This document shows positions 3,888-33,458 of a stretch of 43,035 nt of DNA, in pieces (position 1 is the stretch's first letter; each line of letters starts with the position of its first letter). The stretch is from Clostridia bacterium. Its GTDB lineage: Bacteria > Bacillota > Clostridia > Oscillospirales > Acutalibacteraceae. The stretch is taken from contig JAFXDE010000006.1 of NCBI GenBank assembly GCA_017516315.1, positions 1 through 43,035 on the forward strand, given 5' to 3'. The translations under genes and the position numbers were made by a program. Below the pieces are notes generated by a model that did no database searches, was not told the origin of the DNA, and saw only the letters and a program-made list of their open reading frames with translations.

Positions 3888-3930
3888 ATATTTATATCGG
3901 AAGTTTGCGGCTTTTTCCGCATTAATTCAT

Positions 3931-4062
3931 ATTCCGACACGGCATTTTCTAAGGATTATATCTATGGAAGGCTGTGCGTGACCGAAAAAACACTGCCTGT
4001 CAGAAGAAAGAACAGGTACCGGTCAAGGGTATAGGAGGGAAACCTTTGTACCTTCCGTGATT
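3931..4062 (+). promoter_or_regulatory. Candidate Moco/Tuco-type riboswitch before tupA
   Basis: The leader folds by eye into the parts expected of the Moco RNA family. An arm CACGGC (3938-3943)/GCTGTG (3971-3976) contains an 11-nt tetraloop receptor, CTAAG (3949-3953) opposite TATGG (3963-3967). A nested arm pairs GACCG (3980-3984) with CGGTC (4020-4024) around CCTGT/ACAGG (3996-4000/4012-4016). A third arm pairs AAGG and TA (4025-4031) with TA and CCTT (4049-4054) and is capped by a GAAA tetraloop (4039-4042) on AGG/CCT. A GAAA loop plus its receptor is a known Moco RNA trait. The downstream operon carries tungstate uptake and pterin cofactor genes. Molybdenum versus tungsten cofactor as ligand, and ON or OFF action, are not decidable here. 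Confidence 0.72.
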
Positions 4063-4079
4063 GAAAAGGAGAATGAATT

Positions 4080-4916
4080 ATGAAAAAACTTCTCGCAGTA
4101 TTTCTCGCAGTATTTATGCTCTTCTCACTTGCAGCTTGCGGTGGCGGAGAGGAAGCAAAGACACCCGATAACCCCGTTATCCGTATGTCAACCACCACAT
4201 CAGTAAACGATTCGGGTCTTCTTCCTTACCTTCTTCCTGTTTTCGAAAAGGCTACAGGCTACACCGTAGAGGTACAGTCAGCAGGTACAGGTGCTGCTAT
4301 CCAGAAAGCAAAGGACGGTAATGCAGATCTTATCCTCGTTCATGCCAAGGCATCTGAAGAAGCTTTCATCGAAGAGGGCTACGGCGTAGAGAGACTTCCC
4401 TTTATGTATAATTTCTTTGTAATCGTAGGTCCTGCGGAAGATCCTGCTGGCATCAAGGACGGCGCTGAAAATGCTGCTGAAGCCTTCGCTAAAATTTCCG
4501 ATACAGAATCTACATTCATTTCCCGCGGTGACGAAAGCGGTACACATAAGGCTGAGCTTAAAATCTGGGGTGAAAATGTTCCCGATGCCGAAAAGGAAGC
4601 CTGGTACATAAATGCAGGTCAGGGTATGGGCGCATGTCTTACCATGGCAAGCGAAAAGGGTGCTTACTGCCTTACTGATAAAGCTACATTCCTTTCGAAT
4701 AAGGATTCTCTCAACCTTGAAATTCTTCTCGAGAAGAGTGACGATATGCAGAATGTATATTCTCTTATCGAGTGTAATCCTGAAAAGCTCGACGGTATTA
4801 ACACCGAGGGCGCAAAGGCTCTTATCGAATGGATGATGGGTTCCGAAGCATCTGAGCTTATTGCCGAATACGGCAAAGAGCAGTACGGTCAGGCACTCTT
4901 CTATCTCGAACAGTAA
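4080..4916 (+). CDS. tupA: Tungstate ABC transporter substrate-binding lipoprotein TupA
   Basis: A 278-residue extracellular lipoprotein that captures tungstate and hands it to TupB. The signal peptide ends in the lipobox LAAC with the lipidated Cys at 20. The oxyanion-binding TTTSVNDSGLL follows at residues 38-48, then the TupA-typical GTGAA, the ADLILVHA segment, and the later GDESGTH loop near residues 147-153. TupA proteins prefer tungstate over molybdate by a large factor; ModA-type molybdate binders lack this TTTS/GTG pattern. AAGGAG lies about 8 bases before the ATG. It is the first gene behind the riboswitch candidate and is followed directly by the permease and ATPase genes. Metal preference is inferred from family, not measured. 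Confidence 0.93.
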   Translation: MKKLLAVFLAVFMLFSLAACGGGEEAKTPDNPVIRMSTTTSVNDSGLLPYLLPVFEKATGYTVEVQSAGTGAAIQKAKDGNADLILVHAKASEEAFIEEGYGVERLPFMYNFFVIVGPAEDPAGIKDGAENAAEAFAKISDTESTFISRGDESGTHKAELKIWGENVPDAEKEAWYINAGQGMGACLTMASEKGAYCLTDKATFLSNKDSLNLEILLEKSDDMQNVYSLIECNPEKLDGINTEGAKALIEWMMGSEASELIAEYGKEQYGQALFYLEQ

Positions 4917-16548: not shown

Positions 16549-16690
16549 TAACTTGGGCGGTTTTATTTATTTTATACAAAAATTATATATTTTAAAATAC
16601 TATGATAATGTTTTTAGCGGTAAATTTTTAATTTTTTCTCGTAATTTATAGTGCATATTCAACAAAATAAAATAAATATGTTAAAAACTA

Positions 16691-16719
16691 TTGACAGTAA
16701 AATATAATTTGTGTATAAT
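16691..16719 (+). promoter_or_regulatory. Strong sigma-A promoter of the large structured RNA
   Basis: A consensus TTGACA (16691-16696) and a consensus TATAAT (16714-16719) are separated by exactly 17 bases, the best promoter in the window. Transcription should start near 16727, where the first hairpin of the RNA begins. No open reading frame of note follows, so the product is RNA. Confidence 0.85.
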
Positions 16720-16726
16720 TAAGTCA

Positions 16727-17289
16727 CAATCAAACAAGAGATTGAATCTTAAGAAAAGGGGTGTTACCGATGTACTGTTTAATGTAAACTGTACAGTTTG
16801 ATAAGAAATCTTAAAATGTGAAGCAAAGGGAACTGACTTAATCAAAATATTTAATGAATACCTTAAATAATATAATTTTACAAAAACAGTCAGATGCTCC
16901 CGTATAAAATAAATAATTACTTTTCTGCAGACAGTATATGCAGAAGAATTGAAGATATATTATCGGATTGTCCAGTAAAAAATCATCTTAAAGATAATGT
17001 GCAGAGGAATATAACTTTAAGACAGGAGAAAGGTCTTTGTATAAAGCAAAGACGATGAAGAAAATTAAGTATCTCTCAGTATTATATATTTTCAGTTATT
17101 CGGATTTTTATTTACATAATAAAAGTAAAAAGTGGGATAAGTAAAGGCGCAGAGGAGCCCTTATCCGAAAATAATTTAGTTAAAGCTTTGAATGTGAATA
17201 AGAGATACTTGGTGGTTAAGAAGAAAACTTAATAAATAATATGAGTTAATGATTATCTCCGACGAGGAAAACCTTGTCGGAGATTTTTT
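16727..17289 (+). ncRNA. Large structured non-coding RNA of about 560 nt, possibly ROOL class
   Basis: A complete transcription unit without a protein gene. Stems seen directly include CAATC/GATTG (16727/16740), CTGACT/AGTCAG (16833/16888) extended by GGGA/TCCC (16828/16898), ATTTAA/TTAAAT (16849/16863), TTCTGCA/TGCAGAA (16923/16939), ATTATC/GATAAT (16959/16993), GTCTTTG/CAAAGAC (17033/17047), a 10-bp closing stem AAGTATCTCT/AGAGATACTT (17067/17201), and inside it GGATAAG/CTTATCC (17135/17160). Length, isolation from protein genes and a clostridial host fit ROOL RNA, a family of roughly 580 nt first found in rumen bacteria. Motifs of tmRNA, RNase P and SRP RNA are absent. The class name is a guess from size and context; that it is a structured RNA is well supported. 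Confidence 0.8.
17255..17289 (+). terminator. Terminator of the large RNA
   Basis: ATCTCCGACGAGG (17255-17267) pairs with CCTTGTCGGAGAT (17272-17284) over 13 positions with one G-U pair and a 4-base A loop, followed by a run of six T. It is a textbook intrinsic terminator and sets the 3' end of the RNA. Confidence 0.92.
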
Positions 17290-17331
17290 CGTTTAAGTTT
17301 GTAACTAAAGAATAAATTTATTCTCTTTCAC

Positions 17332-17360
17332 TTGAAATATCCTTTCTGTTGATATATAAT
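17332..17360 (+). promoter_or_regulatory. Sigma-A promoter of queT
   Basis: TTGAAA (17332-17337) and TATAAT (17355-17360) with a 17-base spacer. The surrounding bases repeat those of the tup promoter at 3796. Transcription would start around 17367, just before the riboswitch hairpin. Confidence 0.8.
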
Positions 17361-17377
17361 ACTTATTGCATTTATGC

Positions 17378-17416
17378 GGTCAGTTCGAGACCTTCCTGAC
17401 CTAAACCGAACAAGGT
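17378..17416 (+). promoter_or_regulatory. Candidate preQ1 class I riboswitch before queT
   Basis: A perfect 6-bp stem GGTCAG/CTGACC (17378/17396) has a 12-base loop TTCGAGACCTTC. The loop bases ACCTT (17390-17394) can pair with AAGGT (17412-17416) across the A-rich linker TAAACCGAAC, giving the H-type pseudoknot of preQ1-I switches; the linker end AACAAGG is identical to that of the Thermoanaerobacter aptamer as I recall it. An alternative hairpin AAACCGA/TCGGTTT (17403/17420) uses the linker and could be the competing fold. The downstream gene is a queuosine-precursor transporter, which fits. Confidence 0.62.
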
Positions 17417-17453
17417 ATGTCGGTTTTAAATCAAAACTAAAGGAGTATTAAAA

Positions 17454-17987
17454 ATGAATATGTCTAAAAAGATCCACCGTATTGTTCTGTCAGCGGTAAT
17501 TGCTGCATTGTATGTAGCCTTGACCTTTGTACAGGAAATGATTTTACCCGCCAGCGCCACTATGGCTGTGCAGTTCCGTGTTTCGGAGGCGCTTACCGTT
17601 CTGTCTCTTTTTACGCCTGCTGCGATACCCGGACTTACAGTCGGATGCTTTATAGCGAATTTTTCCGTTTTAGGTGCCTTGCCGACGGATATTATTCTCG
17701 GCTCTCTCGCATCCTTTCTTGCCTGCTTCTTTATGAATAAGCTGAGGAATGTTACGGTTAAAGGCTTCCCTCTTCTTTCTCTGAGTATGCCGGCACTTTT
17801 TAACGGTCTGTTTATCGGTGCTGAAATCGAAATCTTTTTTATCGACGGACCTTTTAATTTCCTGAGCTTTCTCATTCAGGCCGGTCTTGTTGCCTTAGGG
17901 GAATTAGGTGTGCTTTATACTCTCGGTGCGCTTCTCGTTAAAGCCATCAAGGATAGGAGACTGGGAAAGTATCTTAAGGGTGTTTAA
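17454..17987 (+). CDS. queT: QueT-family queuosine-precursor transporter (ECF S component)
   Basis: A 177-residue integral membrane protein with five or six hydrophobic segments, of the QueT family. These act as substrate-binding S components of energy-coupling-factor transporters for preQ1 or a related queuosine precursor. The N-terminal IHRIVLSAVIAALYVALTF and the VQFRVSEALTVLSLFTP segment are typical. AAAGGAG precedes the ATG by 8 bases. A preQ1-type riboswitch candidate in its leader supports the substrate. The ECF ATPase and T component must be encoded elsewhere. The next gene starts 36 bases on with no terminator between, so the two are probably co-transcribed. Confidence 0.88.
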   Translation: MNMSKKIHRIVLSAVIAALYVALTFVQEMILPASATMAVQFRVSEALTVLSLFTPAAIPGLTVGCFIANFSVLGALPTDIILGSLASFLACFFMNKLRNVTVKGFPLLSLSMPALFNGLFIGAEIEIFFIDGPFNFLSFLIQAGLVALGELGVLYTLGALLVKAIKDRRLGKYLKGV

Positions 17988-26152: not shown

Positions 26153-26182
26153 TTGACATTCACTGTGCTTTGAAGGTATAAT
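26153..26182 (+). promoter_or_regulatory. Promoter of the Cys-rich surface protein gene
   Basis: TTGACA (26153-26158) and TATAAT (26177-26182) are 18 bases apart. The -10 abuts an in-frame ATG at 26183, which therefore cannot be the translation start; this fixes the start at 26201. Confidence 0.75.
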
Positions 26183-33410: not shown

Positions 33411-33458
33411 TTGACAAATTAATATTTATATTATATAATTTAGATCGAACAAATGTTC
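33411..33458 (+). promoter_or_regulatory. SOS promoter with LexA box before the Y-family polymerase
   Basis: TTGACA (33411-33416), a 17-base spacer and TATAAT (33434-33439) make a consensus promoter. A perfect LexA box GAAC-AAAT-GTTC lies at 33447-33458 over the expected start point, so bound LexA would block initiation. Confidence 0.88.

What the first reader, a model, noticed from the sequence alone, without database searches (positions are those of the whole stretch)
16691..17289. Complete transcription unit for a ~560-nt structured RNA, ROOL-like in size and setting
A consensus promoter (TTGACA-17-TATAAT) and a 13-bp terminator bracket 560 bases with no gene but at least eight stems, including a 10-bp stem closing a subdomain (17067/17201). 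Known large Clostridia RNAs of this size are few, and ROOL (about 580 nt, first found in rumen bacteria, reported to assemble into multimers) fits best. If it does not match ROOL it would be a new large RNA class.
Basis: partly seen in the sequence, partly recalled or inferred. Interest (0 to 1): 0.78.

Follow-up and report, generated by a model that had tools for sequence, protein, structure and literature searches.

The report
New large RNA with micro-ORF start
The sequence holds a complete gene for a roughly 565-base folded RNA that makes no ordinary protein, matches no catalogued RNA family (it is not ROOL), recurs in related ruminant-gut bacteria, and starts with a ribosome site followed by a five-codon reading frame, a start it shares with a second, more widespread unrecognised RNA.

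Summary
In detail: a 12/12 promoter (16691-16719) and a 13-bp terminator (17255-17284) bracket ~565 nt without a gene. The ROOL reading fails: no Rfam large RNA matches the window copy at E<=10 or the other 14 complete copies at E<=1, and ROOL is over cut-off in 0 of 34 genomes of the genus. It is a real RNA family: 16 copies in 14 of 34 genomes of the genus, 15 complete, 496-599 nt, diverged but sharing promoter, leader, terminator and covarying stems. New point: every copy opens with a strong Shine-Dalgarno and a five-codon ORF (MYCLM, MYCLV, MYRLV or MHCVA, then stop). The same kind of start (mostly MYR-stop) heads a second unrecognised RNA, "type B", whose 3' end occurs in 67 of 394 genomes of the order. 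Likeliest mechanism: a ribosome loaded at the 5' end shields a long-lived structured RNA, as in ermC, hbs and minigene precedents; the body's task is only inferred. It is not a queT leader. No expression data.

The parts
16691..16719 (+). Promoter TTGACA-17-TATAAT
   Evidence: 12 of 12 matches; TATAAT at this place in 16 of 16 type A copies, with a TTGACN-type -35 box before it by eye
16726..17290 (+). Predicted RNA, about 565 nt (type A)
   Evidence: Between promoter and terminator; 15 complete copies of 496-599 nt; z -4.7
16727..16744 (+). 5' end hairpin CAATC...GATTG, only in the L001-L004 subgroup
   Evidence: Invariant in 4 of 4, so no covariation for or against; absent in the other copies
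16752..16768 (+). Extended Shine-Dalgarno AGAAAAGGGGTGTTACC
   Evidence: Among the most conserved columns of A1; its complement, the 16S rRNA tail, is recalled, and the tail pattern was not found in any of 34 genomes
16770..16787 (+). Micro-ORF ATG TAC TGT TTA ATG TAA (MYCLM-stop)
   Evidence: Start and in-frame stop kept in 16 of 16 copies: MYCLM 10, MYCLV 4, MYRLV 1, MHCVA 1
16772..16794 (+). Possible H1 hairpin GTACTGTTTA-ATG-TAAACTGTAC over the micro-ORF
   Evidence: 96% of cells paired but nearly invariant; drawn by RNAalifold in three other subgroups, but none of its pairs is drawn for L001-L004 or in the minimum-energy fold of the window copy
16794..16804 (+). P1 5' strand CAGTTTGATAA
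   Evidence: Pairs 16960-16970; 90.7% of cells paired over its ten counted pairs, one pair with double changes, seven one-sided
16960..16970 (+). P1 3' strand TTATCGGATTG
   Evidence: As above
16828..16901 (+). Subdomain stem 16828-16839 with 16887-16901
   Evidence: Three double-change pairs among L001-L004
16921..16947 (+). Hairpin TTTTCTGCA...TGCAGAAGA
   Evidence: Consensus fold, no double change
16987..17021 (+). Hairpin CTTAAAG...CTTTAAG
   Evidence: Three double-change pairs
17033..17053 (+). Variable hairpin; in L002 and L003 capped by the GURAAGAA loop, in the window copy by another loop
   Evidence: Two double-change pairs
17067..17076 (+). P2 5' strand AAGTATCTCT
   Evidence: Pairs 17201-17210; UA to CG double change in L009 and L012
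17134..17166 (+). Inner hairpin GGGATAAG...CTTATCC
   Evidence: Consensus fold, no double change
17201..17210 (+). P2 3' strand AGAGATACTT
   Evidence: As P2 5' strand
17255..17290 (+). Intrinsic terminator
   Evidence: 13 pairs, 7 G-C, T run; in all 15 complete copies I placed the end by eye at a hairpin with a T-rich tail, weak in L018

Best explanation
16726-17290 encodes a large, structured, untranslated RNA of a family not in Rfam, here called type A, found only in the window's genus (ruminant-gut Oscillospiraceae/Clostridia MAGs) in the searches made. Its first ~80 nt are a module: a strong Shine-Dalgarno, AUG and a five-codon ORF ending in stop, then a long-range stem (P1) that starts a few bases after the stop. 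Proposed mechanism: a ribosome keeps initiating and terminating on this micro-ORF, occupies the 5' end and blocks 5'-to-3' decay; the terminator hairpin guards the 3' end, so the RNA is long-lived and can accumulate. The body, with covarying stems in two domains, is the working part, most likely a scaffold that binds a protein or itself, or a trans-acting regulator. Shown: the unit, its conservation, covarying stems, the micro-ORF in all 16 copies. Inferred: expression, ribosome loading, stabilisation, and the body's task.
For: 16 copies in 14 of 34 genomes of the genus, with promoter and leader in 16 and a terminator in the 15 that do not run off a contig. Alignments fold far better than 60 column shuffles each, terminator removed: z -8.5, -8.8, -7.1 and -5.6. 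In a composite of 15 copies 89.9% of cells pair against 31-43% when slid, 8 pairs with double changes against 3.3 shuffled (2 of 500 as high), 12 cells against 3.7 (0 of 500); H2 uses AU, CG, UA, GC and GU at one pair. Micro-ORF start and stop kept in 16 of 16, also in L019 where codons and hairpin changed. Type B shares the leader with other codons (MYR 14, MNR 4, MYS 1, MKR 1 of 20; one TGA stop). Subgroups are syntenic, as vertical inheritance would give. Precedents: stability of gsiB and ermC tied to ribosome binding (text of PMC7509114; hbs, aprE and STAB-SD seen there as reference titles); hbs has a ribosome-protected 5' product (PMC5419742 passages); a two-codon minigene raises txe expression in cis, possibly through mRNA stability (PMC8708949 abstract).
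Against: No transcript, ribosome-profiling or half-life data. The leader is nearly invariant, so its conservation could reflect RNA or DNA sequence rather than translation. H2 and P1 share three bases and cannot both form fully. P2 could not be placed in 4 of 15 copies, P3 in 9, H2 in 4. Further pair types are not above shuffles, nor is the number of double-change pairs in H2 or in the L007/L008 pair (11 of 60 shuffles). The 16S tail was not found in any of 34 genomes. 20 of 34 genomes of the genus show no clear copy (several are incomplete). The GURAAGAA loop shared with type B is missing from the window copy.
Confidence: 0.5

Rival explanations
1. It is a divergent ROOL (or OLE, GOLLD, raiA) RNA.
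For: Similar size (565 nt against a 574-position ROOL model) and a ruminant-gut source.
Against: No match at E<=10, no large-RNA match at E<=1 in the other 14 complete copies, 0 of 34 genomes over the ROOL cut-off; setting differs.
Confidence: 0.03
2. It is a long cis-regulatory leader: the micro-ORF is an attenuator leader peptide whose translation decides readthrough into the next gene.
For: Leader-peptide-like micro-ORF, hairpins and terminator; in L001-L003 the next gene is queT. Similar micro-ORF starts stand roughly 50-105 nt upstream of protein genes in L095, L096, L098, L100 and L106.
Against: In G016 the RNA is on contig C25 and queT with its own leader on C21; downstream genes differ between subgroups, and in L006, L010, L013 and L018 the next ORF is on the other strand; queT has its own promoter-like site after the terminator (17332-17360).
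Confidence: 0.1
3. The micro-ORF is the active part: a minigene that ties up ribosomes or tRNA (peptidyl-tRNA drop-off), or makes a short formyl peptide; the body only carries it.
For: Start and stop kept in 16 of 16; type B peptides MYR and MLDxK recur across genera. Drop-off papers exist (search listing only).
Against: The peptide differs between A and B and within each; covarying structure over the remaining 500 nt would be unexplained.
Confidence: 0.12
4. A ribosome-tethered regulator: the loaded ribosome is the purpose, bringing the structured body to ribosomes to modulate translation, for example in slow growth.
For: Strong initiation site at the 5' end of two RNAs; type B has a second Shine-Dalgarno and micro-ORF at its 3' end.
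Against: By eye type A shows no second micro-ORF near its terminator; no abundance data.
Confidence: 0.15

Closest known systems
ROOL RNA (RF03087)
   Same: Large structured RNA of similar length, gut source, no protein gene
   Different: No covariance-model match; chromosomal, no tRNAs found nearby; carries a micro-ORF leader
raiA motif / ModT, OLE, GOLLD
   Same: Large structured bacterial RNAs
   Different: No match at E<=10; the ModT paper was seen in a search listing only
STAB-SD, hbs and ermC type 5' stabilisers
   Same: Shine-Dalgarno close to the 5' end
   Different: Those protect mRNAs; here the rest of the molecule is untranslated structured RNA (PMC7509114, PMC5419742 passages)
axe-txe two-codon minigene
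   Same: Very short ORF in a leader, acting in cis (PMC8708949 abstract)
   Different: There it serves a downstream toxin gene; here no gene follows in the transcript
Type B RNA (this work)
   Same: Promoter-proximal CACA, Shine-Dalgarno, micro-ORF, long-range stem just after it (by eye), GURAAGAA-capped hairpin
   Different: Three-codon micro-ORF, different body, second micro-ORF with MLDxK or (M/K)LDxK at the terminator; spread over the order

Membership tests
ROOL | Scores over the Rfam cut-off of 99.1 bits | tested here: not met
   No match at E<=10 in the locus; 0 of 34 genomes over cut-off
ROOL | Length near the 574-position model (659 nt for env-120) | tested here: met
   565 nt here, 496-599 in homologues; size alone is not diagnostic
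ROOL | Found in phages or prophages, often near tRNA islands | tested here: not met
   No tRNA in 43 kb; neighbours look ordinary; no convincing phage or plasmid relative; the four viral pattern hits look like coding sequence by eye
ROOL | Octameric RNA cage | not testable with these tools
   Needs cryo-EM or mass photometry
OLE, GOLLD, raiA | Covariance-model match | tested here: not met
   None among the four matches at E<=10
Cis-regulatory leader of the downstream gene | Constant association with one downstream gene | tested here: not met
   queT apart from the RNA in G016; varied neighbours
5' stabiliser / minigene leader | Strong Shine-Dalgarno and very short ORF near the 5' end | tested here: met
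   16 of 16 copies
5' stabiliser / minigene leader | Ribosome binding lengthens RNA half-life | not testable with these tools
   Needs mutants and rifampicin chase
Structured RNA family | Compensatory changes in predicted stems | tested here: met
   some measures not above control, as told in the report

The most novel reading that the evidence does not exclude
Types A and B are the first two members of an unrecognised superfamily of chromosomal structured RNAs in this order in which a 3-5 codon ORF with a strong anti-Shine-Dalgarno match is a built-in part: the RNA is capped, timed or delivered by a ribosome at its 5' end (in type B at both ends), and the GURAAGAA hairpin is a shared docking site.
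Probability: 0.3. Interest if true: 0.82.

Novelty: new variant of a known kind. Interest (0 to 1): 0.64.

Why it matters
Large structured bacterial RNAs are few and mostly without known function. A further family that lies among ordinary chromosomal genes and starts with a conserved micro-ORF offers a testable handle: mutate one start codon and measure half-life and ribosome association. Type B, with the same start, is spread over the order and had no Rfam match in the copies searched, so the principle may be common and overlooked because the ORFs are far below annotation limits.

Tried and rejected
ROOL, OLE, GOLLD, raiA: no covariance match. A protein gene: no ORF of 20 aa or more is shared beyond the sister pair L007/L008 and an 11-residue piece of L001/L003. 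Phage or plasmid origin: viral pattern hits L034-L037 look like coding sequence and L033 like chance, by eye; phage BLAST gives 36-37 nt pieces in 5 Prevotella phage records, taken as chance; plasmids none. Cis-leader of queT: rejected. One alignment of all 15 copies was judged too diverged and not folded; subgroups and a hand-picked composite were used instead. BLAST hits L015-L017 look like chance. Weak Rfam hits (snoRNA, miRNA, psRNA14, SQ1002 and others) are taken as chance; the SQ1002 hit at L111 is not on the type B strand. The 16S tail pattern gave no match in 34 genomes, so the Shine-Dalgarno complement rests on recalled sequence. The bare loop pattern TGTRAAGAAAC is not enriched in the genus: 132 matches against 113 for its reversed control; its link to A and B is only in hairpin context, on loci largely fetched because of A and B, so it is descriptive. 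A first regular expression for type B 3' ends was too strict (4 hits) and was replaced (20 hits); the second still misses at least L085 and L114. In one search the script failed to find L009 and L011 in the loci used; their neighbours were redone.

Full report
What is there. In 16691-17289 there is a perfect sigma-70 type promoter, about 565 nt without a gene, and a strong intrinsic terminator. The RNA folds well below shuffles (z -4.7).

Known families. cmscan of the whole window at gathering scores finds only a molybdenum cofactor riboswitch at 3920-4087. With E<=10 and relaxed filters on 16600-17460 there are four matches, far under their gathering scores, none a large bacterial RNA. The loci of the 15 other type A copies (14 complete) and one type B copy, searched at E<=1, give one weak snoRNA match, outside the RNA. 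ROOL searched in 34 genomes of the genus: 0 over cut-off, two matches at E<=1 in other genomes, best 17.4 bits.

Homologues. BLAST of the RNA in 98 relatives gives 17 genomes with a match, the own genome included: three other full-length copies at 76-83% identity (L002-L004) and matches to a leader of about 50 nt. Reading on from that leader shows a noncoding stretch of similar length with a terminator each time, except L014, which runs off its contig. A sequence-only leader model (R1, 14 sequences, one of them type B) finds 16 type A copies in 14 of 34 genomes of the genus with E from 4e-23 to 5e-15; 32 of 34 genomes have some match at E<=1, the weaker ones being type B copies, other leaders or chance. 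Outside the genus R1 at E<=1e-4 matches 5 genomes of a 250-genome sample of the family (4 type B copies and one other long noncoding stretch, L113) and 12 genomes of a 394-genome sample of the order besides the own one (8 with type B copies; 4 with gene starts or leader-like sites, L165, L167, L169, L171). No type A copy was seen there; these two searches used stricter filters. Named records behind 13 of the copies are Clostridia and Oscillospiraceae MAGs, many from buffalo, yak, sheep, goat and roe deer gut.

Anatomy. 15 complete copies are 496-599 nt, 29-37% GC. All 16 share AGAAAGGGGTGTTACC (with small variation), ATG, five codons and TAA: MYCLM 10, MYCLV 4, MYRLV 1, MHCVA 1. L019 changed the codons and the hairpin arms yet kept start and stop. 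A few bases after the micro-ORF lies the 5' strand of P1; its partner follows after 58-167 nt. A second stem, P2, closes a 3' domain in 11 of 15 copies. In six copies outside the L001-L004 subgroup a stem P3 is followed by GAAAC or AAAA; in five of these P2 is placed and encloses it.

Covariation. Column-shuffle controls on four subgroups (60 shuffles each, last 45 nt with the terminator removed): energies z -8.5 (L001-L004), -8.8 (L005, L009, L012), -7.1 (L010, L011, L013), -5.6 (L007, L008). Double-change pairs 11 against 3.1, 18 against 7.3, 24 against 11.1 (0 of 60 shuffles each) and 5 against 2.6 (11 of 60, not significant). A fifth pair (L006, L018) was folded but not shuffled and folds poorly. 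L019 was in no subgroup. These shuffles do not keep dinucleotides or phylogeny. In the 15-copy composite (14 distinct rows) I placed segments by flanking sequence and by eye, and left P2 blank in L010, L011, L013 and L019, P3 blank in nine copies, and H2 blank in L001-L004. On what remained 89.9% of 396 cells pair (shuffled 86.5, slid 31-43); 8 of 34 pairs have double changes (shuffled mean 3.3, 2 of 500 as high); 21 further pair types are not above shuffles (100 of 500). H2 pairs in 95.5% of 44 cells, covariation 0.275 against 0.137 (0 of 500), but its number of double-change pairs (1) is not above shuffles. RNAalifold on L001-L004 gives 119 pairs, 12 with double changes, and draws none of the H1 pairs; three other subgroups do show H1.

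Surroundings. Upstream genes are a hexapeptide transferase and a phosphoglucomutase, downstream QueT and an MFS transporter. L001-L004 share the upstream pair, only L001-L003 have queT downstream. L005, L009 and L012 share the genes on both sides; L006, L007, L008 and L011 share an upstream FAD-oxidoreductase-like gene; further copies lie beside other genes (names are by reading, not by a search). In G016 queT and its leader lie on another contig than the RNA, so the RNA is not a queT leader.

A second RNA with the same start. The own genome has a second locus (L042, G000:C31) with TATATT, CACAGAAAGGGAAAGGTGATACC, ATGTACAGGTAA (MYR-stop) and then no + strand ORF of 40 aa or more up to its terminator, a span of 358 nt (- strand ORFs of 43, 51 and 60 aa overlap it). 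20 distinct such type B 3' ends matched one pattern in the loci held at that point; all 20 have the 5' micro-ORF (MYR 14, MNR 4, MYS 1, MKR 1; stop TAA 19, TGA 1) and a second micro-ORF, MLDxKxxxx or M(M/K)LDxKxxxx, with its own Shine-Dalgarno, ending inside the terminator stem; the pattern misses at least two more copies. A model of that 3' end (R2, 13 sequences) matches 67 of 394 genomes of the order, 35 of 169 genera, the own genome included (E<=1e-4, stricter filters). Rfam shows no convincing match in 12 loci searched, 11 with a type B copy and one with L113, nor for L042. The leader pattern RGGTGWTACCRATG occurs 63 times in 34 genomes of the genus against 2 for its reversed control; besides A and B these include 2-3 codon ORFs before secreted-protein-like genes (L095, L098, L100) and sites within or at the start of ordinary genes. 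A hairpin loop GURAAGAA is found in 5 of 15 complete type A copies and in most type B terminators; of 135 occurrences in all fetched DNA 25 cap a stem of five pairs or more: 4 in type A, 19 in type B, one in L113, one elsewhere (L185). The window copy lacks it.

How it most likely works. A 5'-proximal initiation site is a known way to protect RNA: ribosome binding is tied to gsiB and ermC stability (text of PMC7509114; hbs, aprE and STAB-SD seen as reference titles), hbs has a ribosome-protected 5' product (PMC5419742 passages), and the two-codon axe-txe minigene acts in cis, possibly through mRNA stability (PMC8708949 abstract). I propose the same for type A, with the structured body as the product. 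The protective role, the expression level and the body's function are inferred.

Literature. In the listings of searches I saw no paper describing this RNA; the library holds open-access PMC papers only, and no search was made for type B by sequence motif. Kretsch et al. 2025 (PMC12286853: abstract, sections 6 and 8 read) describes ROOL as a phage and prophage RNA that forms an octamer, and raiA as a monomer.

Verdict. A real large structured RNA family, not ROOL, and not matched in Rfam; its new feature is the conserved micro-ORF start shared with a wider RNA family.

Noticed in passing
L042; G000:C31:8529-8911: Type B RNA: MYR-stop micro-ORF at the 5' end, MLDxK micro-ORF at the 3' end, long hairpin terminator; 67 of 394 genomes of the order match its 3' end; no Rfam match.
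   Followed up: partly
17332-17453: Leader of queT with its own promoter-like site (TTGAAA-17-TATAAT) and a conserved block GTCAGTTCGNNACCTTCCTGACCTAAACCG, a variable hairpin and a Shine-Dalgarno; before queT in G000, G032 and G016 and in L002; the block was exact in 3 of 300 family genomes; no Rfam preQ1 match. Candidate unrecognised preQ1-type riboswitch.
   Followed up: partly
3920-4087: Molybdenum/tungsten cofactor riboswitch RF01055, 60.5 bits.
   Followed up: no
L095, L096, L098, L100, L106: Short leaders with a similar Shine-Dalgarno and 2-3 codon ORFs roughly 50-105 nt before secreted-protein-like genes, by eye.
   Followed up: no
L113 around 1500-2200: Another long noncoding-looking stretch (about 680 nt) in a different genus with the same Shine-Dalgarno, a 19-codon ORF and a GURAAGAA-capped terminator; a 6S RNA lies upstream at 734-923.
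   Followed up: no
L002, L003, L007, L008, L013 and type B terminators: Recurrent hairpin loop GURAAGAA closed by U-A shared by types A and B, absent in the window copy.
   Followed up: partly
26153-26182 and 33411-33439: Two further exact TTGACA/TATAAT promoters in the window; three found in all against 0.05 expected.
   Followed up: no
L174: A type B copy with two micro-ORF starts in tandem (MYR-stop, then MYN-stop).
   Followed up: no
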